This document shows, in pieces, positions 3,644 through 27,571 of a stretch of DNA of 34,431 nucleotides. The translations under genes were made by a program, and so were the position numbers. Numbering within the stretch: the first letter of the stretch is position 1; the number at the start of each line of letters is the position of its first letter. Under the pieces are notes generated by a model. The model was not told where the DNA came from and did no database searches. It worked only from the letters and a program-made list of their open reading frames with translations. The DNA is from Desulfobacterales bacterium (GTDB lineage: Bacteria; Desulfobacterota; Desulfovibrionia; Desulfovibrionales; Desulfothermaceae). The DNA lies in the NCBI GenBank assembly GCA_027064715.1, contig JAMOPG010000198.1, positions 1 through 34,431 of the forward strand, in the 5' to 3' direction.

Positions 3644-4450
3644 ATGAAAAATAGCTCCTCAAGATCTTTAGAGTTTCTATCTTTGCCTGGAAGAATTGTA
3701 TTGGAATTTATAAGGGAGTTAGGGCATATTTTTATTTTTTTTATAAAGGGTGTAATATTTTCTTTGATGCCTCCTTATGATATCTATAAGATCTTACAAC
3801 AAATCTATTTTATAGGGTTTAAGTCCATTTTTGTAATTTCATTGGTTGGCCTGTTTACAGGTATGGTCCTTGGACTTCAGGGATATTATACACTGATAAA
3901 ATTCGAAGCTGAAGGGGCATTAGGAGTAGTTGTTGCACTGTCTATTATTAGAGAACTTGGTCCAGTTTTGGGTGCACTAATGATTATAGGCAGGGCAGGT
4001 TCAGCAATGGCTGCAGAATTGGGTATAATGAGGATTACTGAACAGATCGATGCACTAGAGACAATGAATATAAATTCTGTAAAATTTTTGTTCTCTCCAA
4101 GACTCATTGCCTCCATTATTTGTTTTCCATTTTTAACAGCCATTTATGATGTGATTGGTATCATAGGGGGATATCTCACAGGGGTGGTACTTCTTGGAAT
4201 AAATTCTGGGACATATTTTTCAAAAATGGAAACAGTGGTAACAATGGAGGATATAAGGGTTGGTTTTTATAAGGCCCTGGTATTTGGAATATTGATGGTG
4301 ACTATTTGCTGTTATCAGGGCTATTTTGTACATAAAAGAAGAGAAGGTTTTGGTGCTAGGGGAGTGAGTTTTGCTACTACAAGTGCAGTGGTTATATCTT
4401 CTGTGTTAGTTTTGGTGGGAGATTATGTACTTACATCATTTTTACTCTAG
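3644..4450 (+). CDS. mlaE: Phospholipid ABC transporter permease MlaE
   Basis: A 268-residue inner-membrane permease of the MlaE/YrbE family. It is the membrane subunit of the Mla complex, which moves phospholipids between inner and outer membranes and keeps the outer leaflet asymmetric. The conserved core is visible around residues 80-150: a GMVLGLQGY segment, then SIIRELGPVLGAL and IGRAGSAMAAELG, then a glutamate-rich EQIDALETM coupling region that contacts the ATPase. Five or so hydrophobic helices span the rest. It is first in the set mlaE-F-D-C-A; the next start lies 21 bases downstream. The ATG is preceded by an AAGGAAAA ribosome site. Length is near the usual 260. Confidence 0.95.
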   Translation: MKNSSSRSLEFLSLPGRIVLEFIRELGHIFIFFIKGVIFSLMPPYDIYKILQQIYFIGFKSIFVISLVGLFTGMVLGLQGYYTLIKFEAEGALGVVVALSIIRELGPVLGALMIIGRAGSAMAAELGIMRITEQIDALETMNINSVKFLFSPRLIASIICFPFLTAIYDVIGIIGGYLTGVVLLGINSGTYFSKMETVVTMEDIRVGFYKALVFGILMVTICCYQGYFVHKRREGFGARGVSFATTSAVVISSVLVLVGDYVLTSFLL

Positions 4451-4471
4451 GATTTGTTGGGTAGTAAAAAT

Positions 4472-5680
4472 ATGAAAGAACCAATAATAGAATTTAGAGA
4501 TGTCCACAAGAGCTATGGGGATAAAACTGTCTTAAATGGAGTTAATCTTAGGCTATATGAGGGTGAAGTAACCACAATTATTGGCAAAAGTGGTGTTGGC
4601 AAAAGTGTGTCTTTAAAGCTCATGATAGGTTTAGACACACCAGATAAAGGGGATATCCTTTTTAAAGGGCAGTCTATTCTGAAAATGCCTAAAAAGAGAT
4701 GGAAAGAGGTAAAAAAAGAGATAAATTTTATGTTTCAAAATAATGCCCTGTTTGATTCACTCACAATATTTGAAAATATCGCCCTTCCTTTAAAAGAGAC
4801 TACCAGGCTTAGCAGCAAAAAGATAAAAGAGAAAGTTTTAAATATGATGGAGGCGTTAGATATTTTAGGGCATGAAAACAAATACCCTTCTCAATTATCT
4901 GGAGGCATGCAAAAGAGGGTGGCTTTAGCCAGGGCCCTGGTCACTGATCCAAAAATGGTACTGTTTGATGAGCCCACTGCAGGATTAGATCCTGTAAGAA
5001 GAAAGAGTGTATTGGAGATGATAATCTCAAAACAAAAGGAATTTGGTTTTACTGCAGTATTGGTAAGCCATGATGTACCCGATGTGTTTTATATATCTAA
5101 TAGGGTGGCTATACTAGAGAGTGGAGATTTTATCTTTCAAGGCAGTCCAAGGGAATTAGAATTCAATGAACATCCAGTGGTCTATGAGTTTATAAATAGT
5201 CTTGAGTTCTTAAAAAATGATGTTGCTGGTATGATGACAAGAAGAGATTTTGAAAAATTTTTTAAATCTATATTAGAAAAGGATGATCAAAGAGATTTGT
5301 ATTTGGTTGTGTATGAAATAGCCAGATACAATGAGTTGATAGAAAAGGTAGGGCACATAACACCATTTTATATTTTGCAGGATTTGGTTTCTCTGTGTAA
5401 ATCTATTTGCAAGGACAATATCTTGGGAATTGGAAAATATGGACCTGATAAAGTAGTTTCCATTGTAGATACTAGTAGATTTAATTTTAAGGATAAATTA
5501 AATGCAATTCAAAAAAGTATTAAAAATAAAGATCTTAAATATTCTGTTACTTCAGCTAGATGTGTAGAATTTTCCATATTCATTGGTTTTACTGAGGTAA
5601 AGAAGGATAAGACAATTATAGAATTGGTTGACAATGCCTTAAAAAATAAAATATTACTGGCTAGTTTAACATGTAATTAA
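4472..5680 (+). CDS. mlaF: Phospholipid ABC transporter ATPase MlaF with a C-terminal GGDEF-like extension
   Basis: Residues 1-245 are a complete ABC ATPase of the MlaF type: Walker A GKSGVGKS, Q-loop MFQNNALFDSLT, signature LSGGMQKRVALARAL, Walker B MVLFDEPTAGLDP and switch histidine in VSHDV. It would power phospholipid movement with MlaE and MlaD. MlaF is normally about 270 residues; this one has 402. The extra ~140 residues look like a degenerate nucleotide-cyclase (GGDEF) fold: an initial strand LYLVVYEIARYNEL, a VGH segment, YGPDK (323-327) where active cyclases have GGDEF, then a FSIFIGFTEV strand and a VDNALKNK helix matching the SiG and AD-AL-aK landmarks. Catalytic residues are absent. 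No MlaB STAS gene occurs in the operon. I prefer the ATG at 4472 to a TTG at 4454. The ATPase call is firm; the domain match is by eye. Confidence 0.92.
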   Translation: MKEPIIEFRDVHKSYGDKTVLNGVNLRLYEGEVTTIIGKSGVGKSVSLKLMIGLDTPDKGDILFKGQSILKMPKKRWKEVKKEINFMFQNNALFDSLTIFENIALPLKETTRLSSKKIKEKVLNMMEALDILGHENKYPSQLSGGMQKRVALARALVTDPKMVLFDEPTAGLDPVRRKSVLEMIISKQKEFGFTAVLVSHDVPDVFYISNRVAILESGDFIFQGSPRELEFNEHPVVYEFINSLEFLKNDVAGMMTRRDFEKFFKSILEKDDQRDLYLVVYEIARYNELIEKVGHITPFYILQDLVSLCKSICKDNILGIGKYGPDKVVSIVDTSRFNFKDKLNAIQKSIKNKDLKYSVTSARCVEFSIFIGFTEVKKDKTIIELVDNALKNKILLASLTCN

Positions 5681-5696
5681 AAAAGAGGATGGGGAT

Positions 5697-6155
5697 ATGT
5701 CAGACAAAAAATATTATATTGAATTAACTGTGGGAATCTTTGTTTTTATATCTCTTTTATGTGTAGGTTATTTGACTATAAAACTTGGCAAGATGGAGCT
5801 TGTTGGTAATAAATATTATACTATCAAAGCGAGATTTAGTAATATAACAGGGCTTAAAACAGGCAATGAAGTGAGGATATCGGGGGTAGAAGTGGGACGA
5901 GTAAAAAAGATAGAATTAAATACTCAAGACTATTCAGCAATTGTTTATATGGATATAAGGAAAGATGTAAAATTGAGCGATGATTCCATAGCATCTATTA
6001 AAACCAATGGCCTTATTGGGGATAAATATATTGCTATATCTCCAGGTGGTTCAGGTCTATATTTAAAAGAAGGAGATATGATAGTAGATACTGAGCCTCC
6101 ATTGGACTTTGAGAATTTGGTCAATAAATATGTCTTTGGAAGTGTAAAAAAATAA
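5697..6155 (+). CDS. mlaD: MCE-domain lipid-binding protein MlaD
   Basis: A 152-residue protein with one N-terminal membrane helix (about residues 8-28) and one MCE domain in the periplasm. MlaD forms a hexameric ring on MlaE through which phospholipids pass. The MCE signature reads KARFSNITGLKTGNEVRISG and continues VEVGRVKKIEL, with a later SIKTNGLIGDKYIAISPG segment, as in E. coli MlaD. The C-terminal tail is short. The start follows a GAGGATGGGG purine-rich site, 16 bases after mlaF. Its position between the ATPase and the MlaC gene matches standard mla order. Confidence 0.94.
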   Translation: MSDKKYYIELTVGIFVFISLLCVGYLTIKLGKMELVGNKYYTIKARFSNITGLKTGNEVRISGVEVGRVKKIELNTQDYSAIVYMDIRKDVKLSDDSIASIKTNGLIGDKYIAISPGGSGLYLKEGDMIVDTEPPLDFENLVNKYVFGSVKK

Positions 6156-6168
6156 GGAAGATAGAGCC

Positions 6169-6816
6169 ATGAAAAAAATGATCTTTACTTTGGTTGTTTT
6201 TATTAACTTATGTGTGATAACTAGTTCCTATTCAATGGGACCAAAAGAGCATCTTAGGTTATATATTGATAAAGCAATCTCAGTGTTCAATGAATATGAT
6301 ATAGAAAAAAACTCTACAGAATATAATAGGGCATTTGAGTGCAGACTGGTTAATTTGGCAGATGAGATCTTTGCATTTAATATCATGTCTAGGATGGTGC
6401 TTGGATATAACTGGAATAAATTCTCAAAAAAACAGCAACATGAATTTGTATGTCTTTTTGTTGGATTGCTTGCTGACCATTATTTTGATAAAATCTTAGA
6501 ACATATAAATGATGTAAAAAATTACAATAAAGAAAATATAGAAATTTTAGAAGAAAAATTTTTTACTCCTACAAAAGCAGAGGTGGATACCAAAATTAAA
6601 TATCAAGATAAAGTCACACCTGTAAATTATAGATTTTTGTATTATCAAAATAAGTGGCAGATCTATGATGTAATAATAGAAGGTGTAAGCCTTATTAAGA
6701 ATTATAGAAGTCAATTTAAAGAATTGTTTATGAAGCAAACTCCAGAAGAAATATTAAAGGATTTAAGGGAAAAGGTAAAAGATATAAGTTGTTTAAAAAA
6801 TTGTAATATAAATTAA
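6169..6816 (+). CDS. mlaC: Periplasmic phospholipid shuttle MlaC
   Basis: A 215-residue exported protein. The N-terminus (lysines, then a hydrophobic stretch to about residue 22) is a signal peptide. The remainder fits the MlaC/Ttg2D family, which ferries phospholipids across the periplasm between MlaA and MlaFED. Visible family traits are the early FNIMSRMVLGYNWNKFSKKQ segment, the long helices, and the late tract VNYRFLYYQNKWQIYDVIIE followed by GVSLIKNYRSQF, the best conserved part of MlaC. Identity is low elsewhere, but neighbours and length (MlaC about 210) agree. It follows mlaD by 13 bases. Confidence 0.9.
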   Translation: MKKMIFTLVVFINLCVITSSYSMGPKEHLRLYIDKAISVFNEYDIEKNSTEYNRAFECRLVNLADEIFAFNIMSRMVLGYNWNKFSKKQQHEFVCLFVGLLADHYFDKILEHINDVKNYNKENIEILEEKFFTPTKAEVDTKIKYQDKVTPVNYRFLYYQNKWQIYDVIIEGVSLIKNYRSQFKELFMKQTPEEILKDLREKVKDISCLKNCNIN

Positions 6817-6837
6817 AACTCAAGATGTTATAATATT

Positions 6838-7575
6838 ATGAATAAGATAACAACAATTTTAATTATAAGCCTTACAATTTTTATGTTTGTATCACCTTTG
6901 TATTGTCAAGAAAATGATTTAGACAAATTAATGGTAGAGCTTGAAGAAGACTACTCAAAAGACACAAAAAAGATAAATGATCCTTTGGAACCTATAAATA
7001 GGGCCTTTTTTAAGATAAATGACATCTTGATGGTTTATGTATTAAATCCTGTTACAAAAGTTTATTCTCAAGTATTACCTGACAATTTTAGACAAGGGAT
7101 ATCAAGGGGATTTAATAATATAAAATATCCAATACGAGGTGTAAATAGATTTCTTCAGTTAAATTTTTCATTGTTTTTCAAAGAAACAGCAAGGTTTATT
7201 ATAAACACTTCATTGGGCTTTTTCGGATTTATAGATGCAGCATCAGGTATTTCATATTTAAAACCACCACCTACAACAGATACAGGTATTACTCTGGGAA
7301 AATATGGTGTTGGACATGGATGTTATCTAGTGTTACCAGTTTTAGGTCCATCATCCTTAAGGGATGGAATTGGATTTATTGGAGATCATTTTTTAAATCC
7401 CGTAACATATGTAGAGCCTAATTATGCATCTTTTTTATTAAAGGGTGAAGATAAGTTAAATAAATTGTCATTTCATATGAAAGATTATGAGGACTTAAAG
7501 GCATCAGCAATGGATCCATATATTTCCTTTAGAAATGCATACTTGCAAAACAGAGAATACTATTTATCAAAATAG
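6838..7575 (+). CDS. mlaA: Outer-membrane phospholipid-retrieval protein MlaA (VacJ)
   Basis: A 245-residue MlaA/VacJ homologue. The family forms a ring-shaped channel in the outer membrane that takes mislocalised phospholipids from the outer leaflet and hands them to MlaC. Diagnostic stretches are NDPLEPINRAFFKIND, then TDTGITLGKYGVGHG and LVLPVLGPSSLRDGIG. The N-terminus is a signal peptide ending near SPLYC. A cysteine is present, but the residues before it (P-L-Y) do not make a good lipobox, so lipoprotein processing is uncertain, unlike in E. coli. It is the last gene of the mla set, 21 bases after mlaC; uvrA follows after 58 bases with no visible terminator, so read-through is possible. 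Confidence 0.94.
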   Translation: MNKITTILIISLTIFMFVSPLYCQENDLDKLMVELEEDYSKDTKKINDPLEPINRAFFKINDILMVYVLNPVTKVYSQVLPDNFRQGISRGFNNIKYPIRGVNRFLQLNFSLFFKETARFIINTSLGFFGFIDAASGISYLKPPPTTDTGITLGKYGVGHGCYLVLPVLGPSSLRDGIGFIGDHFLNPVTYVEPNYASFLLKGEDKLNKLSFHMKDYEDLKASAMDPYISFRNAYLQNREYYLSK

Positions 7576-10402: not shown

Positions 10403-10918
10403 ATGAAAATGAAATTTATTGTTGTTATAGTATTATCTTGTTTTCTATAGAGCAATTTAACTACTGCTGGATGGCTCAAGGTCCCTTTTGGAGTTGTTGA
10501 ATCTTATACTGGCAAGCCTTATGTGAATAAAAAGATAATAAAGAAAAGGCAGCGTATATATGTAGGTGATGAGATTTCAACAGATTTAAATGCAACAGTA
10601 AAGATCAAAACAAAAAAAGGAGATATATTTTTTGTAGGTCCCAATACAAAGATAATTATTGAGGACACAGAAGATATAAATGTGAAGGAAGGTACTATAC
10701 GTTCCATTATCCATAAATTAGGCCCTAAAGAGGTGTTTAATGTTGTTAGTGGAGGAGGAGTTGCTGGTGTTAAGGGTACAGAATTTATAGTATATGCGAA
10801 TGAGAATGCCTCAGCACTTTTTACAAAAAAAGGTAATGTGACACTTTCTAATTTTGGAGGTAAGGTAATTACAAATAAAGGAGAGATGAGTGAGAGTGCG
10901 TTTAATGTAAGATTTTGA
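10403..10918 (+). pseudogene. FecR-domain exported protein, interrupted by an in-frame amber codon
   Basis: From the ATG at 10403 (AGGAG site 7-8 bases upstream) the frame reads a signal peptide, MKMKFIVVIVLSCFL, then a TAG at 10448-10450, then continues without further stops to 10918 (171 codons). The remainder is a FecR-type beta domain: a YVGDEISTDLNATVKIKTKK stretch, a GPNTKIII strand, and VVSGGGVAGVKGTEFIVYAN, the most conserved FecR element. Such proteins without the regulatory partner FecI are often periplasmic or surface-linked. The first usable start after the stop is GTG at 10523, which would yield a 131-residue protein without a signal peptide. Nearby genes use TAG as an ordinary stop, so this is probably an inactivating mutation or a base error. 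It starts 25 bases after uvrA. Confidence 0.75.
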
Positions 10919-11207: not shown

Positions 11208-12410
11208 TTGGGGTGGTGTCCTGTTAGCAGATTAAAACCAGGGGCTGTGCTACAAGAAGATGTTAGGGCTCCTAATGGGAGGCTTCTTCTTAAGAAAGGT
11301 AGGGTATTAGATAAAAAGCGTATAATGGTGTTAAAGAGTTGGGGTGTGACAAAGGTTTGTATAGATGAGTTATGTGGGAATAAGGAAAATAAATCAACAG
11401 AATTAAACAAAGAGCTGATTTCTAGCCTTTTTCCATCGTCTGCGCTACAAGATAGCCTTACCCAAAGGATAGTATTTTTGTGTTTTAAATGGCTAAATAA
11501 CGCTGGAAAACAAACTATTTCCCAATTTATAAATCATAAAAAATATCAAAAGATCTCAATTCCCAAGAAATTAAAGATTTCTCCAGAAAAGATAGTTGCA
11601 TCTCAAAAAAAGCTCTGTTCCTTTTCAGCTATTTATAAAAAAATGATGGAGGTGTTAAATGATCCCAACAGTTCTGCCCAAAATATTGGAGAGGTAATAA
11701 GCAAGGATACCTCCCTTTCTGCAAAACTTTTGCGTTTTGTCAATAGTCCCCACTTTGGTCTTGTGCAAAAAATTGATACAGTGAGTAGGGCTATAGCGCT
11801 TTTGGGTTTGGATCAGATTAAGTTGCTGGTTAAAGGAATTATTATAATAGATAATTTTAAAAATCTTCCGTCAGATGTGATCAATATGAGGCAGTTTTGG
11901 CGTCATTCAGTTGGAGTGGCCTTGATGTCATCAATAATAGCAAACACTAAAGTGGGATTATCCAGAGAATTCTTTTTTGTTGCAGGACTTCTCCATGATA
12001 TTGGCAAACTTGTTATGCTCATGGCAATGCCAAGGGTTTATTTTAATATTATGCTTTATGGAAAAGAAAATAATTTACCTTTATATGAGGTAGAGAAAGA
12101 GATATTGGATTTTACTCATGGCGATGTAGGTGTTATTCTTGCAAAAAAGTGGTATTTCTCAAATTCTTTGTGTGAACCCATTAAATTTCATCATGAACCG
12201 CTAGCTGGTACGTTTCCAGAGGATATAGCTATTGTATATCTTGCAGATATCCTGACACAGCTGCTTTTGCATGGATTTGGTGGTAACATCTATCTGCCCC
12301 TTATAAATAAAGAGGTTTTAACTAAATCAGAAATTGATATTGATTCACTTGATTTGGTGATAGGGACTTTTCTCAAACAAATAAACACAATAGAAACGGC
12401 TTTTTTATAA
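11208..12410 (+). CDS. HDOD-domain signalling protein
   Basis: A 400-residue cytoplasmic protein. The start is TTG: a GGAGG ribosome site lies six bases upstream and no better codon exists. Residues ~1-60 resemble the N-terminal region seen before some HD-GYP proteins (SRLKPGAVLQEDVRAPNGRL, LLKKGRVLDKKRI). Residues ~125-330 form an HDOD domain: a helical VISKDTSLSAKLLRFVNSP segment, SRAIALLGLDQIKLL, then LLHDIGKLVMLM and FTHGDVGVILAKKW. HDOD proteins resemble HD phosphohydrolases but usually lack full metal sites and act in signal relay; here the HD pair is kept, but no GYP motif is seen. It heads a run of six same-strand genes; the kinase gene follows after 22 bases, suggesting partnership in one pathway. 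Activity on a nucleotide is not shown. Confidence 0.88.
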   Translation: MGWCPVSRLKPGAVLQEDVRAPNGRLLLKKGRVLDKKRIMVLKSWGVTKVCIDELCGNKENKSTELNKELISSLFPSSALQDSLTQRIVFLCFKWLNNAGKQTISQFINHKKYQKISIPKKLKISPEKIVASQKKLCSFSAIYKKMMEVLNDPNSSAQNIGEVISKDTSLSAKLLRFVNSPHFGLVQKIDTVSRAIALLGLDQIKLLVKGIIIIDNFKNLPSDVINMRQFWRHSVGVALMSSIIANTKVGLSREFFFVAGLLHDIGKLVMLMAMPRVYFNIMLYGKENNLPLYEVEKEILDFTHGDVGVILAKKWYFSNSLCEPIKFHHEPLAGTFPEDIAIVYLADILTQLLLHGFGGNIYLPLINKEVLTKSEIDIDSLDLVIGTFLKQINTIETAFL

Positions 12411-12432
12411 TCACTATTTTGTGGAGTATCAG

Positions 12433-14949
12433 ATGAGAGAAAGTCAAAGAGTGGTTTCTTATAAAGATAAACAAAGTGTGTTGAATTTGTTAAGAGAGGC
12501 AGTGGAACTGATTAAGTTTGATACGCGTATTCAAGATATTAAAGACTATGATATAGTTTTAAAGGAAACTGCTGATAAAATTTTTACAATACATGATTTT
12601 ATTGGGGTGAGTTTTTATATTGTAGATGATATAGATAACTCCTTTCAACAAATATTATCTATTCCAGAAACATATAGTAATTATTTTGAAGAAGAATATT
12701 TAGATCTAGTGGAAACTGGAGCTTTTGCATTGGCATTAAATAATAATTCGTTTAAAATTTTGGCAAGTAAACAGGGAAATGGATTTATTGTATTGCATCC
12801 TATTGCCACACCAAGAAGAATACATGGAATGTTTATAGGACTTACATATGATAATGAATATAAATTCCCAGAGCATGCGCAATATCTCTTATCATTAGTA
12901 TTATTTGCATGTGCAAATCTTCTAGATAGTTTTAAATTATATAATTACTTGAAAAATTTAAATGAAAAATTGCAAAATAATTTACAAAAGTTAAAATTTG
13001 CAAACATACGATTAACTCAAGAGATAATGATTAGAAAGGAAAAGGAAATAGAATTAAGAAAAAGTGAGGAAAAATATAGATCCATTATAGAAAATCTCGA
13101 AGATGCATATGTAGAATTAGATTTAGAGGGTAGAATCCAATTTTGTAATAAGAGTTTATCAAAAATGTCAGGATATGCAATAGAGGAGCTTATTGGAAGA
13201 CATTTTAGTGATTTTACTGACATCAAATACAAAAAAAATATCTTAAGAGATGTTAAAGAGTTATTTGATAAGAAGATAATTGGGAAATATCGTAATTGGA
13301 AATTTTATAAAAAAGATGGGCAAGAGCTTTGGGTGGAAAGCCTTGTTTCTCTAAAAAAAGACAGAGATGGAAAAATTGTTGGTTTTAGAACTATACTCAG
13401 AGACAAAACAAAAAAGATAGAATATGAAAGAAGATTAAAAGAGAGTGAAAAAAAATATAGGGCAATATTTGAAAGCACAGGTGTGCCCACTCTTATAGTT
13501 GATTTTAAAGGTAATATCCAAATGGCCAATAATGAAGTTGAAAATCTCTTTGGATATACAAAAAGAGAAATTGAAGGAAAGCTTTCTATAAATAATTTTT
13601 TATACAATGTTGATTGGGACTATATTGGTAAAAATTGTATTAGGAATTTGTCAAATAAATATCCTCAAAAAATAAAATGCAAAGGAATAGATAAAAATAA
13701 AGAAGTAAAAGAGCTCATAATTACTGTAGAAAGATTGGCTAATACTCATCAATGTATAGTTTCTATATTGGATTTAACAGAGCAGGAAAGGCTTGAATCT
13801 CAACTTAGGCAAGCTAGAAAATTTGAGGCCTTAGGTATACTGGCAGGTGGTATAGCTCATGAATTTAATAATATTCTTCAGGCACTGAGAACACAATTTG
13901 AAATCATGGAGCATATGAAAGATAAGTTTCAATTGGGAACAAACTATTTTAAGAGAATAGATAAATTACTGAGTAGGGCAGAAGTAGTAGTAAATAGGTT
14001 GCTTACATTTAGTAGAAAAAAAGATATTAAGATGGAGCCAGTGGATCTTAATGAAGTAATTAAATCCTCTAAAGAACTTCTTAGAGGTGGAATAACAAAG
14101 AGAATAAGTATAGACACTTGTTTAAGCAAAGTTCCAATCATGGTAAAGGGAGATTTTGTACAATTAGAGGAGGTAATAGTAAATCTGGTGAATAATTCAG
14201 TGGATGCAATTGGAGATAAACAGGATGGAGAGATAGAGATTGGGGTTAAGGTTGTAGAAAATAATGATATCTTAAAAAATCAAAATATCAAAGGGGAAGA
14301 GGTTGCGTGTATGTGGGTTAAAGATAATGGATGTGGGATAAGCCAAAAGGATCTGGATAGGATATTTACTCCATTTTACACTACAAAGGAAATTGGAAAA
14401 GGCACTGGTCTTGGACTTGCGATAGTCTATGGGATTGTGAAGTCACACAATGGATATATAACATGTGAAAGTGAAGTTGGGAAAGGCACTATTTTTCAGA
14501 TTTACCTACCAATATTGTCTGAAGAAATTTATTCGCAAGAGGGTGTTGAGAAGTCCACAAAAAAAGAGATAGAGAAAATCAAGGCAAAGGTTTTAGTGGT
14601 AGATGATGAGGAAATGATAAGGGAAATTGTAAAAGATGCCCTTGAGATGAAGGGGATAGAAGTAATTTTGGCTGAAAGAGGTGAAGAGGCCATATCTATT
14701 TTAAAGGAAAGGGGGGAATTTGATCTCATACTCATGGATGTGGATATGCCCGGGATGGGTGGAGTTAGTTGTGCAAAAGAGATTTTAAAAGAGTTTCCAA
14801 AGCAGAAGATTGTGTTGTGCTCTGGATATGGAAAAGAAACAGTAGATGCTTCTATCAAGGATGTAGGTATAGTTGATTTTATTCAAAAGCCATTTACACT
14901 TGATAAACTTTTTGATATCATAATTAACTGTCTTAAAAAAGGAAACTAA
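12433..14949 (+). CDS. Hybrid PAS-sensor histidine kinase with receiver domain
   Basis: An 838-residue soluble hybrid kinase with no membrane helix. In order: an N-terminal GAF-like region (~1-170); a coiled coil; two PAS domains (about 210-335 and 335-455, both opening with SEEKYR/SEKKYR type sequences); a HisKA domain with phospho-acceptor H476 in GGIAHEFNNIL; an ATPase domain with N-box NLVNNSVDAIGD, DNGCGIS, FTPFYTTK and GTGLGLAIVYG; and a C-terminal receiver with DDEE, phospho-acceptor D769 in MDVDMPG, and the KPF lysine. I chose the ATG at 12433, seven bases after a GGAG site, over a GTG at 12421. The phosphorelay output is unknown since no DNA-binding regulator is nearby. It lies between the HDOD gene and a DUF4178 gene (5-base gap), so it likely controls or shares function with that operon. 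Confidence 0.93.
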   Translation: MRESQRVVSYKDKQSVLNLLREAVELIKFDTRIQDIKDYDIVLKETADKIFTIHDFIGVSFYIVDDIDNSFQQILSIPETYSNYFEEEYLDLVETGAFALALNNNSFKILASKQGNGFIVLHPIATPRRIHGMFIGLTYDNEYKFPEHAQYLLSLVLFACANLLDSFKLYNYLKNLNEKLQNNLQKLKFANIRLTQEIMIRKEKEIELRKSEEKYRSIIENLEDAYVELDLEGRIQFCNKSLSKMSGYAIEELIGRHFSDFTDIKYKKNILRDVKELFDKKIIGKYRNWKFYKKDGQELWVESLVSLKKDRDGKIVGFRTILRDKTKKIEYERRLKESEKKYRAIFESTGVPTLIVDFKGNIQMANNEVENLFGYTKREIEGKLSINNFLYNVDWDYIGKNCIRNLSNKYPQKIKCKGIDKNKEVKELIITVERLANTHQCIVSILDLTEQERLESQLRQARKFEALGILAGGIAHEFNNILQALRTQFEIMEHMKDKFQLGTNYFKRIDKLLSRAEVVVNRLLTFSRKKDIKMEPVDLNEVIKSSKELLRGGITKRISIDTCLSKVPIMVKGDFVQLEEVIVNLVNNSVDAIGDKQDGEIEIGVKVVENNDILKNQNIKGEEVACMWVKDNGCGISQKDLDRIFTPFYTTKEIGKGTGLGLAIVYGIVKSHNGYITCESEVGKGTIFQIYLPILSEEIYSQEGVEKSTKKEIEKIKAKVLVVDDEEMIREIVKDALEMKGIEVILAERGEEAISILKERGEFDLILMDVDMPGMGGVSCAKEILKEFPKQKIVLCSGYGKETVDASIKDVGIVDFIQKPFTLDKLFDIIINCLKKGN

Positions 14950-14954
14950 TTTAT

Positions 14955-15473
14955 ATGGGCATTTTTGATTTTTTTAAAAAAAAGAAAGAAAAACCAGATA
15001 TACAGTTGGTGGGTCATTCATTGGAAAATCTAAAAATAGGGGATGTAATAGAATTAGATGGTGAGGTATGGGAAGTCAAATCAAGGGGTTATTATGATTA
15101 TGGTGATGATAGAGAATGGGATTTTAAGATTTGTTCTCCAACTCGAGAGGGATTTTTGAATAAGGATGAAGATGGACTCTATTTTTTTGTAAAGGATGAT
15201 CTCAAAAAACTCTCTTTAGATCTCATTAGTTATTTAAAGTCCCATGATGATTTGCCAAGTGATATAATTTTTGATAACAAAAAATACAAGCTGGTTTTTT
15301 CTTCTGCTGCATATTATGTGAAGGAGGGTCATAGATCTCCTGTGATAATATGGGATTTTGAAAGTGAGGATGGGAAGTTGCTTGAGATTTTGCAATGGGG
15401 GGATGAAGATTTTGAGATCTATAGTGGAAGAAGATTGGAAGAGTGGGAAATAGAAAATGTCTTTTCAAGATAA
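14955..15473 (+). CDS. DUF4178 domain protein
   Basis: A 172-residue soluble protein opening MGIFDFFKKKKEK, an amphipathic/basic leader that may touch the membrane. The body fits DUF4178: LKIGDVIELDGEVWEVKSRG early, EWDFKI, then IIWDFESEDGKLLEIL and QWGDEDFEIYSG near the end. The function of the family is not established; I recall it being encoded beside DUF350 membrane proteins and spermidine-synthase-like enzymes, exactly as here. It starts five bases after the kinase gene, and its 3' end overlaps the next gene by 17 bases, indicating translational coupling. No catalytic motif is evident. Confidence 0.75.
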   Translation: MGIFDFFKKKKEKPDIQLVGHSLENLKIGDVIELDGEVWEVKSRGYYDYGDDREWDFKICSPTREGFLNKDEDGLYFFVKDDLKKLSLDLISYLKSHDDLPSDIIFDNKKYKLVFSSAAYYVKEGHRSPVIIWDFESEDGKLLEILQWGDEDFEIYSGRRLEEWEIENVFSR

Positions 15474-15816
15474 AAATAAGAGTCAGGGAATATCACTTCT
15501 TGGCGTTATAATAGGCATTATTGTTGTATTTATTATAATAAATATTTTGTATTCAATGTTTAGAGTGGTATTCCCCACATATGGGACAGATATTTATAGA
15601 TATGGTTATTATGGTTATTCTCATTATCAACGATATCCAGATTATCCCTCTCAATATAAGACTCCCCCTACAGAAAAACCTCGTGCAAGCTCAAAATTTC
15701 AAGAAAGGTTCTCTTCTAAGACACACTCATCCTCCTTTGCGTCCCGTTTTGAATCAAAGTTTGGAAGGAGCAGGGTATCAACTTTTAGATCTTCAGGATT
15801 TTTTGGAGGGAAGTAA
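15457..15816 (+). CDS. Small membrane protein with Tyr- and Ser/Arg-rich tail, unknown function
   Basis: A 119-residue protein I do not recognise. After a 10-residue polar start there is one strong membrane helix (about residues 12-36, ISLLGVIIGIIVVFIIINIL). Next is a tyrosine/proline-rich stretch (residues ~44-70), then a basic Ser/Phe/Arg repeat-like tail (SSKFQERFSSK, SSSFASRFESKFGRSR, STFRSSGFFGGK). The low-complexity, aromatic/glycine end suggests a disordered tail on one side of the membrane; its orientation is unknown. The gene overlaps the DUF4178 gene by 17 bases and ends three bases before the DUF350 gene, so it is probably real despite its composition, and probably works with the DUF350 protein. 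Confidence 0.7.
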   Translation: MSFQDKNKSQGISLLGVIIGIIVVFIIINILYSMFRVVFPTYGTDIYRYGYYGYSHYQRYPDYPSQYKTPPTEKPRASSKFQERFSSKTHSSSFASRFESKFGRSRVSTFRSSGFFGGK

Positions 15817-15819
15817 GCG

Positions 15820-16659
15820 ATGGCTCAATTTTTAAATATAATATCCACTGCCATATGGGTTGTCACCTGGCTTATAATCGGAAAATTTGTATTTGATAGA
15901 TTGTATTATAAAAAGGTCTCATTACAGATGGAACTTTTTTCTAAAAACAATGCGGCCATGGGTTTTTCTTTTTCAGGATTTTTGGCTGGAATGTCTGTGG
16001 CATTGGTGACCTCTATAGATCCTTTATATCCCCCCTACATAAATGGTACTACTGGAACTATTCTATTGGTTGTAATTTTGTTATTCACTAGATTATTTGA
16101 TTTGATTTTTATGAGAAAAATAGATCTACCTACACAGATAATTGAAAAACAGAATGTAGCAGCAGGAATAACTGAATGCAGTTTTTTTCTATCTATGGGA
16201 ATTATTGTATCAGGAAGTTTTGTTGGTGGAGAGATAACCTCATGGTCCTCAATGTATCTAGAATCAATAATATATAGTATTATTGGACTAATTTTATTTT
16301 TCATAAGTTCTAAGATCATGTCTTTTATTTTAAAAGTTGATTTAGAAGAGGAACTGCTGGAAGATAATAGGGCAGTTGCCACTTCTTTTTCTGGACTCTT
16401 TTTAGGTGTCTCCATTGTTATTCATGAAGTCATATCAGGTCCAATTGCTGGAACTATCTTGGAAGATATAGGAATTACTCTGTTAGAGTGGCTTATCTCC
16501 ATAGTTGTGATGATAATCCTTTTTTATATCTTTGATTTGATTCTTTTTAGAAAATTTTCTTTTAGGGCAGAACTCAAAGAACCGAATCTTGGTGCAGGAA
16601 TAGTTATTGGATGTCTATTTATGGCATCATCTTTAATATCTTTTATTTTAACGAGTTAG
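15820..16659 (+). CDS. DUF350 (UPF0719) membrane protein, duplicated domain
   Basis: A 279-residue inner-membrane protein with about eight hydrophobic helices arranged as two DUF350 units, roughly residues 10-130 and 145-279. Each unit repeats the same marks: an FDRLYYKKV or FDLILFRKF stretch after a helix, then a (N)xAAGI/NLGAGI segment followed by a helix with small residues (QNVAAGITECSFFLSMGIIV; LKEPNLGAGIVIGCLFMASS), and a NNAAMGFSFSGFLAGMSVAL / NRAVATSFSGLFLGVSIVI pair. E. coli YjfL is a single-unit relative. Transport or channel activity is not demonstrated for the family. It follows the small membrane gene by three bases and precedes the spermidine-synthase-like gene by 46 bases. Confidence 0.85.
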   Translation: MAQFLNIISTAIWVVTWLIIGKFVFDRLYYKKVSLQMELFSKNNAAMGFSFSGFLAGMSVALVTSIDPLYPPYINGTTGTILLVVILLFTRLFDLIFMRKIDLPTQIIEKQNVAAGITECSFFLSMGIIVSGSFVGGEITSWSSMYLESIIYSIIGLILFFISSKIMSFILKVDLEEELLEDNRAVATSFSGLFLGVSIVIHEVISGPIAGTILEDIGITLLEWLISIVVMIILFYIFDLILFRKFSFRAELKEPNLGAGIVIGCLFMASSLISFILTS

Positions 16660-16705
16660 TCTCATGTCTCACTAAAGTAAATAATCAATCTTTAAAAACA
16701 AAAAA

Positions 16706-18238
16706 GTGCTTTCTCCAAAAATATCAATAAAACTATCTATCTTTTTTACAGGTTTTGCAGGTATTGTTGCTGAATACCTGCTTTCTACTCTTGCGTCCTA
16801 TCTCTTAGGGGACTCCATCTTTCAATGGACAATGACCATCTCCATTATGCTCCTTGCAATGGGAGTTGGTGCCAGGTTTAGTAAATACATAAAAGATCCC
16901 ATGCTTTTTAATGCCCTTATATATACAGAAATATCAATTAGCCTACTGGTTAGTTTTTCTGTGTATATTGCATATCTTCAAGCCCCTTATGAATCGAGAA
17001 TGACATATACAATATATTCACTCTGTTTTTTGATTGGATTTTTGATAGGATTGGAAATTCCTCTGGCTGTTCGGATTAATGAGTTATTTGAAGAGCTTAA
17101 GGAAAATATTTCAACTATATTGGAAAAAGACTATTTAGGTGCACTTCCTGGCGGAATTTTGTATGGATATTTCTTTCTACCAAAACTTGGATTATTGTAC
17201 ACTCCTGTTTTGGTGGGATCATTAAATCTTATGGTTGCAGGTCTTCTTCTTTTTTCTTTTCCTAAAAGGGTCAAAAAACATATGATTTTTTTGTATCTTG
17301 GAACAATATGTTGTATAGCTTTTTTTACATTTTTTGCAAAACCAATATATCTATATTTAGAACAAAGGTTTTACAGAGATCCTATAGTTGAAATAAAACA
17401 GACAAAATATCAAAAAATCGTTATAACGAAATGGAGAAATGATTATTTGTTATATTTAGATGGACATCTGCAACTCAATACAGTTGATGAAAAAAGGTAT
17501 CATGAAACAATAGTGCATATACCCATGTCTTTAGTTAATGCCCAAAATATATTGGTTATTGGTGGTGGAGATGGGTGTGTAGTAAGGGAACTTTTAAAAT
17601 ATCCCTATGTAAAGAATATATTTTTGGTTGATCTAGATAAGGAATTCGTCAATTTTTCCATGCAGAATAAGATAATGAGAAAGATTAACCAAAATAGCCT
17701 CTTAAATAAAAAAGTAAAGCTTTTTTTTCAAGATGGTTTTAATTTTGTGAAAGATTTTAAAAAAAATATAAAATCAGATATAGATCTCGTAATAGTTGAT
17801 CTCCCTGATCCAAGAAATATACGAAGTTCTAGATTATATTCTTTAGAGTTTTATAAAATTATTTATAGAGTCTTATCTGAAAATGGCGTTATAATAACTC
17901 AGGCAACCACTCCTTTTTTTGCAAAAAAAGCATTTTGTTGCATTTTAAATACAATAAAATCTGCACATTTTTATGCATATCCCCTAATAATAAATGTTCC
18001 ATCCTTTGGGGAATGGGGATTTGTAATTGGTTTAAAATCATTTTTATCTAAATCTAGTGTTCAAAAGAGTGTGTATAGAAATCTAAATGAAAACTATACA
18101 AAATTTCTAACAAAAGGCCTTGCAGCTTCTTTTTTTGAAACACCAAAAGATCTTGTTTGCAATGGTGTGAAGATAAATACATTAGTTAATCCTGTTATAC
18201 TCAAATATTACGATGATTCATTTTGGGACCTACTTTAA
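16706..18238 (+). CDS. Membrane-anchored spermidine-synthase-like aminopropyltransferase
   Basis: A 510-residue protein with an N-terminal membrane part (about seven helices, residues ~8-215) and a C-terminal cytoplasmic spermidine-synthase fold. The latter shows YLDGHLQLNTVDEKRYHE (substrate loop), NILVIGGGDGCVVREL (nucleotide/decarboxy-SAM site), VDLDKEF (acidic ribose binder) and DLVIVDLPDPRN, which carries the aspartate of the catalytic D-x-x-D-P element. The predicted reaction is transfer of an aminopropyl group from decarboxylated S-adenosylmethionine to a polyamine; the true acceptor is unknown and no SAM decarboxylase gene is adjacent. The GTG at 16706 is the first start in frame but has no good ribosome site, so the N-terminus is less certain. 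It is last in the operon; a strong terminator follows. Confidence 0.88.
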   Translation: MLSPKISIKLSIFFTGFAGIVAEYLLSTLASYLLGDSIFQWTMTISIMLLAMGVGARFSKYIKDPMLFNALIYTEISISLLVSFSVYIAYLQAPYESRMTYTIYSLCFLIGFLIGLEIPLAVRINELFEELKENISTILEKDYLGALPGGILYGYFFLPKLGLLYTPVLVGSLNLMVAGLLLFSFPKRVKKHMIFLYLGTICCIAFFTFFAKPIYLYLEQRFYRDPIVEIKQTKYQKIVITKWRNDYLLYLDGHLQLNTVDEKRYHETIVHIPMSLVNAQNILVIGGGDGCVVRELLKYPYVKNIFLVDLDKEFVNFSMQNKIMRKINQNSLLNKKVKLFFQDGFNFVKDFKKNIKSDIDLVIVDLPDPRNIRSSRLYSLEFYKIIYRVLSENGVIITQATTPFFAKKAFCCILNTIKSAHFYAYPLIINVPSFGEWGFVIGLKSFLSKSSVQKSVYRNLNENYTKFLTKGLAASFFETPKDLVCNGVKINTLVNPVILKYYDDSFWDLL

Positions 18239-18248
18239 AGAGTAATAA

Positions 18249-18276
18249 AATTTAGGGGGCTTTTGCCCCCTAAATT
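18249..18276. terminator. Bidirectional terminator between the aminopropyltransferase and ppaC genes
   Basis: A perfect 12-bp inverted repeat, AATTTAGGGGGC / GCCCCCTAAATT, with a TTTT loop lies between two convergent stop codons. T-rich tracts follow on both strands (TTTTATTACT on the minus side, less pronounced on plus), as expected for a shared terminator. Confidence 0.9.
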
Positions 18277-26104: not shown

Positions 26105-27493
26105 ATGTGGAAAGGTAGATTTAAGGAAAATTTAGATGAGCTTGTGCTGGATTATACAGCATCAATAGATATTGATAAATATTTTGCTGAGCAAGATGTA
26201 AAAGGATCAATAGCTCATGCAAAAATGCTTACAAAACAGGGGATATTGACAGCAGAAGAGGGGGAAAAAATAGTAGCTGGTTTAGAAAAAATATTAAAGG
26301 AAATTAAAGAGGGGTCTTTTCCTTGGAGAAAGGATTTGGAAGATGTTCATCTAAATGTGGAGATGAGACTAACTGAGTTAGTGGGTGATGTGGGCAAAAA
26401 ATTGCATACAGCAAGAAGTAGAAATGATCAGGTTGCATTAGATTTCAGGATGTTTGTTTTGGATAGGATTAAGATATGGCAAAATGGGCTTATTAATTTA
26501 ATTAATACATTAAAATCAAGGGCCTCTGAACACATAGAGGTTATTATGCCTGGCTATACTCATCTACAACCAGCTCAGCCAGTATCTTTAGCTCAATATC
26601 TACTTGCTTATGCATTTATGTTTAAACGTGATTTTGAGAGAATCGAAGATATAAAAAAAAGGGTAGCTGTATCTCCATTAGGGGCCGCTGCACTGGCAGG
26701 TACCACCCATTTTATTGATCCTGATTTTGTTAAACAAGAGATAGGCTTTTTAGATGTTTTTTCAAATAGTATGGATGCAGTATCTGATAGGGATTTTGTC
26801 TTAGAGGCCCTTTTTTGTGGTTCTGTTATTATGGTGCACTTAAGCAGATTGTGTGAAGAGATAATAATCTTTTCCAATCCATGTTTTGGGTTTATTTTAC
26901 TACCAGATGAATTTGCCACAGGTTCATCTATTATGCCACAGAAAAAGAATCCTGATGTTGCAGAACTCATGAGAGGAAGATCTTCAAAGACAATTGGGAA
27001 CCTAGTTTCTCTTTTAACCCTTATAAAATCTTTACCTCTGGCTTATAATAGGGATCTACAAGAAGACAAGCCTCCATTTATAGATAGTGATAAGATAGTT
27101 TCCTCTTCTTTAGTAATTATGTCTCGAATGATGGAAAAAATAGAATTTGATGCAAAAAATATGAGAAAGGCATTAAATAAAGGTTTTTTAAATGCCACAG
27201 AGTTGGCAGATTATCTTGTAACTAAAGGGATACCTTTTAGAGAGTCTCATTATATAACAGGCAAGATTGTTGCATATGCTGAGGAAAATGGAAAAGGGTT
27301 GGAAGAGCTTACAATAGATGAGTTTAGGAGATTTTCAGATAAGATAGATGAAGATGTCTATTCTGTACTTGATTATAAAAATGCAGTGAAAAGGAGAAAT
27401 ATAGAAGGGGGAACAGGCTTTGATTCTATTAAGGTACAGATTAAAAAGATAGATGCTTGGATTGAAGACAAAAAAAATGGCGGAAGCGTATAG
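26105..27493 (+). CDS. argH: Argininosuccinate lyase
   Basis: A 462-residue member of the fumarase/aspartase superfamily; it splits argininosuccinate to arginine and fumarate as a homotetramer. Visible regions: [28 protein letters not shown]-type segment ([12 protein letters not shown]), and the signature loop [12 protein letters not shown] with the catalytic serine. The length is as expected. The last codons (for GSV and the TAG stop, ending 27493) lie inside the 3' end of the convergent selenocysteine tRNA gene, so the stop codon is formed by tRNA T-arm sequence. The residues there (NGGSV) look like a ragged tail and probably do no structural work. Confidence 0.97.
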
Positions 27494-27571
27494 GAGTCGA
27501 ACCTACCGGCGACCTCTCGGCCGCCCACTGGATTTGAAGTCCAGGCGCCACACCGGTGGCGTAACGCTTCC
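27478..27571 (-). tRNA. selC: tRNA-Sec (anticodon TCA)
   Basis: Read on the minus strand the gene begins GGAAGCGT and ends ACGCTTCCG followed by an encoded CCA (27480-27478). It has the selenocysteine hallmarks: an 8-bp acceptor stem with G discriminator, a D-arm CCACCGGTGTGG, an anticodon stem-loop CTGGACTTCAAATCCAG with anticodon TCA, a long variable arm GGGCGGCCGAGAGGTCGCC, and a T-arm GTAGGTTCGACTCCTAT. It implies the genome uses selenocysteine at UGA (e.g. formate dehydrogenase or hydrogenase), although no selenoprotein was recognised here. The 3' end overlaps argH by 16 bases. Confidence 0.97.

What the first reader, a model, noticed from the sequence alone, without database searches (positions are those of the whole stretch)
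11208..18238. Six-gene operon coupling two signalling proteins to DUF4178, a small tailed membrane protein, double DUF350 and a membrane aminopropyltransferase
The genes are tightly packed (gaps 22, 5, overlap 17, 3 and 46 bases), share one likely promoter and end at a strong terminator. DUF4178, DUF350 and SpeE-like genes are, as I recall, found together in other bacteria but without assigned function. Adding an HDOD protein and a hybrid histidine kinase at the front suggests that this module is signal-controlled. A working idea is that the enzyme makes a polyamine-type product at the membrane, the DUF350 protein moves or senses it, and the kinase reports envelope or redox state. No SAM decarboxylase is adjacent, so the aminopropyl donor must come from elsewhere or the chemistry differs.
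Basis: partly seen in the sequence, partly recalled or inferred. Interest (0 to 1): 0.65.

Follow-up and report, generated by a model that had tools for sequence, protein, structure and literature searches.

The report
Split membrane-stress cassette with polyamine enzyme
Four of these six genes are a divergent copy of an already described bacterial membrane-stress gene set built around a membrane-bound polyamine-making enzyme; its usual partner PspA sits elsewhere in the genome, and the two signalling genes in front look like a separate, loosely attached pair.

Summary
The last four (DUF4178, a 119-aa tailed protein, 8TM DUF350, 7TM-SpeE) are a divergent version of a published cassette: the CesT/Tir-PspA-linked '7TM spermidine synthase' operon (PMC11237479). 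The missing CesT/Tir-PspA pair is present in the same genome on another contig and belongs to the cassette type of PspA. CesT/Tir and DUF4178 co-occur in 5 of 5 (order) and 12 of 12 (phylum) strongly CesT-positive genomes, and the parts are split between loci in several other genomes too. The 119-aa protein is a shortened form of the cassette lipoprotein: its globular domain is gone, its basic Ser/Gly tail is kept. The HDOD plus hybrid-kinase pair is not a fixed part. A same-genus relative has the cassette without it and the pair elsewhere, the pair recurs alone in many relatives, and the kinase has no membrane segment. Another same-genus genome keeps the pair in front of the cassette, with one extra gene between, so the link is real but loose. 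A SpeD gene exists elsewhere in the genome. The likely function is membrane-surface aminopropylation feeding a PspA-type envelope-stress response; the acceptor is unknown.

The parts
11208..12410 (+). HDOD-domain protein (400 aa, TTG start); signalling gene in front, not a fixed part of the cassette
   Evidence: orthologues in G008 lie away from the cassette
12421..14949 (+). Cytosolic hybrid histidine kinase PAS-PAS-HisKA-HATPase-REC (842 aa from GTG; ATG at 12433)
   Evidence: no hydrophobic segment; standalone HDOD+kinase pairs elsewhere
14893..14921 (+). Candidate internal promoter TTTACA-17-TATCAT with TG, 33 bases before DUF4178 (weak evidence)
   Evidence: the class as a whole is not above chance
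14955..15473 (+). DUF4178 protein, 172 aa, beta-rich, no hydrophobic segment; cassette component
15457..15816 (+). 119-aa single-TM tailed protein; shortened homologue of the cassette lipoprotein (Ctha_1186-like), tail only
15820..16659 (+). Double DUF350 (YjfL family), 8 TM helices
16706..18238 (+). 7TM-type membrane aminopropyltransferase (PRK03612), catalytic motifs kept
18248..18275 (.). 12-pair hairpin between convergent genes; T-run on the minus-strand side only

Best explanation
Genes 3-6 (DUF4178, tailed protein, DUF350, 7TM-SpeE) are the membrane half of the known PspA-CesT/Tir polyamine-type envelope-stress cassette, in a divergent form that is split in this genus: the CesT/Tir-PspA half is at another locus and acts in trans. 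Shown by sequence: a membrane-anchored aminopropyltransferase homologue with intact donor and catalytic motifs; an 8TM partner; a basic tailed membrane protein related to the tail of the cassette lipoprotein; SpeD in the genome to make the donor dcSAM; a cassette-type PspA and its CesT/Tir partner in the genome. Inferred: SpeE at the inner membrane aminopropylates a polyamine or another amine; DUF350 passes on or senses the product; the tail protein contacts the product or the outer face; and PspA/CesT-Tir with DUF4178 act on the inner leaflet to stabilise the membrane. The HDOD-hybrid kinase pair is a separate, widespread two-gene module that stands upstream in part of the genus; it may be co-transcribed here but is not needed for the cassette. 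Confidence by layer: cassette identity 0.9, dyad in trans 0.8, signalling pair optional 0.8, the chemical mechanism 0.3.
For: The published operon has CesT/Tir, PspA, DUF4178, Ctha_1186 lipoprotein, 8TM DUF350 and 7TM-SpmSyn. Own genome: PF22550 CesT_Tir_1 (4e-31) next to PspA (6e-46) at C120:6991-8088. That PspA falls with cassette PspAs, 100/100, apart from solo PspAs of the same order. Co-occurrence: all 5 CesT genomes among 199 of the order and all 12 strong CesT genomes among 395 of the phylum have DUF4178. The split is seen also in G047, G234, G572, G235 and G424. A lipoprotein profile built without the genus finds the small proteins at 9e-5 and 1.6e-4 with 0 of 4000 shuffles, and in genome G008 picks only that gene (E 0.003). 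SpeE motifs DGxxQ, GGGDG and DxPDP are kept and align to solved synthases. SpeD in the genome; SpeD inside or next to the cassette in Bacteroidia. Autonomy of the pair.
Against: G008 (95% complete) has the four genes but no PspA or CesT/Tir was found, so either it was lost or lies in a gap, or the membrane half works without it. G047 keeps HDOD-kinase in front of the cassette despite an inserted gene, which argues for some selected linkage. No structural relative was found for DUF4178 or DUF350, so their roles are guesses. Co-occurrence counts ignore shared ancestry (two to three independent lineages in the order). Nothing shows the acceptor or any enzymatic activity.
Confidence: 0.65

Rival explanations
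1. One reading: one six-gene signal-controlled operon in which the HDOD protein and hybrid kinase specifically control the polyamine membrane module.
For: Tight packing with a 5-base kinase-DUF4178 gap; the pair precedes the cassette also in G047.
Against: G008 has the cassette with a PIN gene upstream and two HDOD-kinase pairs on other contigs; at least 11 adjacent HDOD-kinase pairs in 8 genomes outside the genus that lack DUF4178; none of the cassettes surveyed outside the genus has the pair as same-strand neighbours; no TM segment in the kinase.
Confidence: 0.15
2. The membrane half works without PspA in this genus, as a stand-alone aminopropylating or export device; the CesT/Tir-PspA pair in the genome is not functionally tied to it.
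For: G008 has the four genes and no detected PspA or CesT; the genus proteins are divergent and the lipoprotein domain is lost.
Against: The dyad is kept in both G000 and G047, CesT at 82% identity, while relatives without the cassette lack it; strict co-occurrence at order and phylum level.
Confidence: 0.15
3. Ordinary spermidine synthesis: the gene is a second spermidine synthase whose neighbours are incidental.
For: Catalytic motifs intact; SpeD in the genome.
Against: The genome already has a canonical 277-aa SpeE, next to a decarboxylase-like ORF identified by eye only (C245); the four-gene neighbourhood is conserved across phyla.
Confidence: 0.05

Closest known systems
CesT/Tir-PspA operon group 2 with 7TM-spermine/spermidine synthase (Ravi et al. 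2024, PMC11237479; e.g. AAN56744-AAN56747)
   Same: DUF4178, 8TM DUF350, 7TM-SpeE and a counterpart of the lipoprotein, in the same order as in several relatives; CesT/Tir and PspA present in the genome
   Different: CesT/Tir-PspA at another locus; lipoprotein reduced to a TM anchor plus tail; no RHH regulator seen; HDOD and hybrid kinase genes in front
YjfL/DUF350-PspA-glutathionylspermidine-synthase-like operons (group 3 of the same paper)
   Same: DUF350, PspA and polyamine chemistry
   Different: No ATP-grasp ligase, DUF2491 or DUF1190 here; DUF350 is the 8TM form
HDOD + hybrid histidine kinase gene pairs of Desulfovibrionales
   Same: Genes 1-2 are such a pair
   Different: Here directly upstream of the cassette
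Soluble spermidine synthases of known structure (e.g. 2e5w, 1iy9, 7xif)
   Same: Catalytic domain, residues about 227-480
   Different: N-terminal hydrophobic 7TM-type domain of about 215 residues

Membership tests
CesT/Tir-PspA group-2 cassette | 7TM-fused spermine/spermidine synthase | tested here: met
   NF002956 1.7e-153 over its cut-off; hydrophobic N-terminal half
CesT/Tir-PspA group-2 cassette | 8TM DUF350 | tested here: met
CesT/Tir-PspA group-2 cassette | DUF4178 | tested here: met
   5.1e-17
CesT/Tir-PspA group-2 cassette | Ctha_1186-type lipoprotein | tested here: not met
   Only the tail is present; no lipobox or globular domain, and no full-length copy found in the genome. That the lipoprotein of the surveyed loci is the Ctha_1186 family is inferred from position, as no such model was available
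CesT/Tir-PspA group-2 cassette | CesT/Tir-PspA dyad in the same operon | tested here: not met
   Dyad present in the genome but at C120:6991-8088
CesT/Tir-PspA group-2 cassette | CesT/Tir-PspA dyad in the same genome, cassette-type PspA | tested here: met
Aminopropyltransferase (SpeE) | Donor and catalytic motifs (DGxxQ, YHE, GGGDG, D-x-D, DxPDP) | tested here: met
   Alignment to solved synthases and invariance in the membrane family
Aminopropyltransferase (SpeE) | Use of dcSAM and identity of the acceptor | not testable with these tools
   needs an enzyme assay
Single six-gene operon | One transcript from a promoter before HDOD | tested here: inconclusive
   Promoter scan at chance level; no expression data
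Single six-gene operon | Six genes together in relatives | tested here: not met
   G047 yes but with an inserted gene; G008 no; no cassette surveyed outside the genus

The most novel reading that the evidence does not exclude
The tailed protein is the protein acceptor of the membrane aminopropyltransferase. Its basic Ser/Gly tail, which ends in a nearly invariant C-terminal lysine (11 of 12 aligned lipoproteins and all 3 short forms), would be aminopropylated, somewhat as eIF5A lysine is modified to deoxyhypusine, and the short form in this genus would be the acceptor stripped to its essential tail. Against it, the lipoprotein forms should lie outside the cytosolic membrane face while the catalytic domain is probably inside.
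Probability: 0.06. Interest if true: 0.8.

Novelty: new variant of a known kind. Interest (0 to 1): 0.4.

Why it matters
The cassette is known but has no experimentally assigned function in the papers found. Two things here make it more testable. First, the parts co-occur even when scattered over two or three loci, which argues that they work together in trans and are not just neighbours. Second, the lipoprotein has been reduced in this genus to a membrane anchor plus its C-terminal tail, which points to the tail as the part that matters. The case also corrects a tempting over-reading: tight packing in one genome does not make the kinase pair part of the module.

Tried and rejected
Fold comparison of DUF4178 (model pLDDT 84, pTM 0.77): only lipocalin/FABP- and NanoLuc-like barrels with E >= 0.0045 and TM about 0.22-0.25, not a match. 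Fold comparison of DUF350 (pLDDT 87, pTM 0.87): nothing (E >= 0.1). No PDB relative of either by profile. Sigma-54 sites before HDOD, DUF4178 or the G008 cassette: none good; a 10-of-12 site near the dyad faces the other way. Assembly chimera rejected because G047, a separate genome, has the same HDOD-kinase-cassette order. Foreign origin by base composition: GC of the six genes 0.30-0.35 against 0.34 for the window, no signal. Papers on DUF4178 and YjfL returned only PMC11237479; most other DUF350 hits look like word-start matches such as DUF3504 (not read).

Full report
Observation. All six ORFs are present on the plus strand at the stated places with the stated gaps; the 22-base gap assumes the ATG at 12433, while the GTG start at 12421 gives 10. 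Pfam and NCBIfam give HDOD; a hybrid kinase with two PAS domains and a receiver; DUF4178; no family for the 119-aa protein; double DUF350; and the membrane spermidine-synthase-like family PRK03612. Promoter-like sites are at chance level, and candidates also lie just before gene 2 and just before DUF4178. The end hairpin is real but its T-run belongs to the converging pyrophosphatase gene. One transcription unit is therefore plausible, not shown.

What the last four genes are. The literature search found one paper with DUF4178 and spermidine synthase: Ravi et al. 2024 describe an operon of CesT/Tir, PspA, DUF4178, a Ctha_1186 lipoprotein, an 8TM DUF350 (YjfL family) and a synthase fused to a 7TM domain. 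Counterparts of four of those parts are here, in an order also seen in relatives. PspA and CesT/Tir are not in the window but are in the same genome, side by side, at C120:6991-8088. In a tree of 22 PspAs the own protein falls with cassette PspAs and away from the solo PspAs of other Desulfovibrionales (100/100, though on a long branch). The organism is a MAG of Desulfohalobiaceae, judged by its nearest named relative.

Co-occurrence. In 199 genomes of the order, DUF4178 is in 6, CesT_Tir_1 in 5, all inside the 6 (hypergeometric p 2e-9 ignoring ancestry); the full-length membrane SpeE scores over its cut-off in five of the same six, and in fragments in the frameshifted G047. In 395 genomes of the phylum all 12 strong CesT hits also have DUF4178 (p 7e-19 with the same caveat, and with 'strong' chosen after seeing that the 11 weak hits, E above 1e-10, lack DUF4178). 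Scattering is not unique to the window: in G234, G572, G235, G424 and the same-genus G047 the dyad is also apart, and in G235 and G424 the DUF4178 gene and the lipoprotein-DUF350 genes are at further loci. In G402 and G092 the set is adjacent but in two opposed sub-operons, CesT-PspA-DUF4178 and lipoprotein-DUF350-SpeE. So the module has two halves that can separate while staying in one genome.

The small tailed protein. A profile of 17 cassette lipoproteins, none from this genus, finds the small proteins of G008 (9e-5) and of the window (1.6e-4) through their C-terminal part, and none of 4000 shuffles of the window protein. A 12-sequence profile searched in whole genomes picks in G008 only this gene (0.003) and finds no full-length lipoprotein in G000, G008 or G047 (the window copy itself was below that threshold). 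The tails share YYG and SFxxRxxxxxGRSR/T-type stretches and end in GGK or similar. The N-terminal half, a lipobox and a globular domain elsewhere, is replaced by one hydrophobic segment.

The enzyme. Motifs that bind decarboxylated SAM and catalyse transfer are kept and align with solved synthases. SpeD is encoded at C25:2592-2912 next to a branched-chain polyamine synthase, and a canonical SpeE at C245. In Bacteroidia SpeD is inside or directly after the cassette, which supports use of the aminopropyl donor. The acceptor is unknown.

The signalling genes. In same-genus G047 the order is HDOD, kinase, a gene that by eye encodes a B12-binding radical-SAM protein, then the cassette. In G008 the cassette follows a PIN-domain gene, and two HDOD-kinase pairs (about 50% identical) lie on other contigs. 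Reading together, at least 11 adjacent same-strand HDOD-kinase pairs occur in 8 genomes outside the genus (G001, G010, G015, G020, G025, G035, G040, G056), none of which has DUF4178; three were checked in the DNA. No cassette outside the genus has the pair as same-strand neighbours. The kinase has no TM segment. The pair is best read as an independent module attached in part of the genus; whether it was gained by G000/G047 or lost by G008 is not resolved.

Verdict. New variant of a known kind: a divergent, split cassette with a stripped lipoprotein and an optional signalling pair upstream. Function at the level of an envelope-stress, membrane-surface aminopropylation system is inferred from the family context and from the published proposal, not shown.

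Noticed in passing
window 10403-10918 +: FecR-domain gene upstream of HDOD has an in-frame TAG within its signal-peptide region (MKMKFIVVIVLSCFL*), so it is probably a pseudogene or a sequencing error.
   Followed up: no
window 27478-27571 -: tRNA-Sec gene.
   Followed up: no
window 3644-7575 +: Genes that read by eye like an Mla-type lipid transport set (MlaE, MlaF, MlaD, MlaC, MlaA/VacJ) lie upstream, on the same strand before uvrA; not tested with profiles.
   Followed up: no
L029 (G000:C25) 1568-2936: SpeD next to a branched-chain polyamine synthase (BpsA_C, 8e-86), an enzyme I recall mainly from thermophiles.
   Followed up: partly
L027 (G000:C120) 4360-6581: Gene that by eye encodes a hybrid-cluster protein, divergent from the CesT/Tir-PspA pair, with a 10-of-12 sigma-54-like site upstream.
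   Followed up: no
L016-L020: Flavobacteriales carry a second 7TM-SpeE gene a few kb from the cassette, followed by two conserved genes of about 355 and 500 aa.
   Followed up: no
L013 3913-4485 +: A rhomboid-like membrane protein (by eye, GASG motif) lies between DUF350 and 7TM-SpeE in a Bacteroidia cassette.
   Followed up: no
L023 7750-9250 +: In G047 a gene that looks like a B12-binding radical-SAM protein sits between the kinase and DUF4178; this MAG has many frameshifts.
   Followed up: partly
L148, L150, L160: Some Desulfobacterota have tandem DUF4178 domains near SpeD and, in L150, the membrane SpeE, without CesT/Tir: another variant of the set.
   Followed up: no
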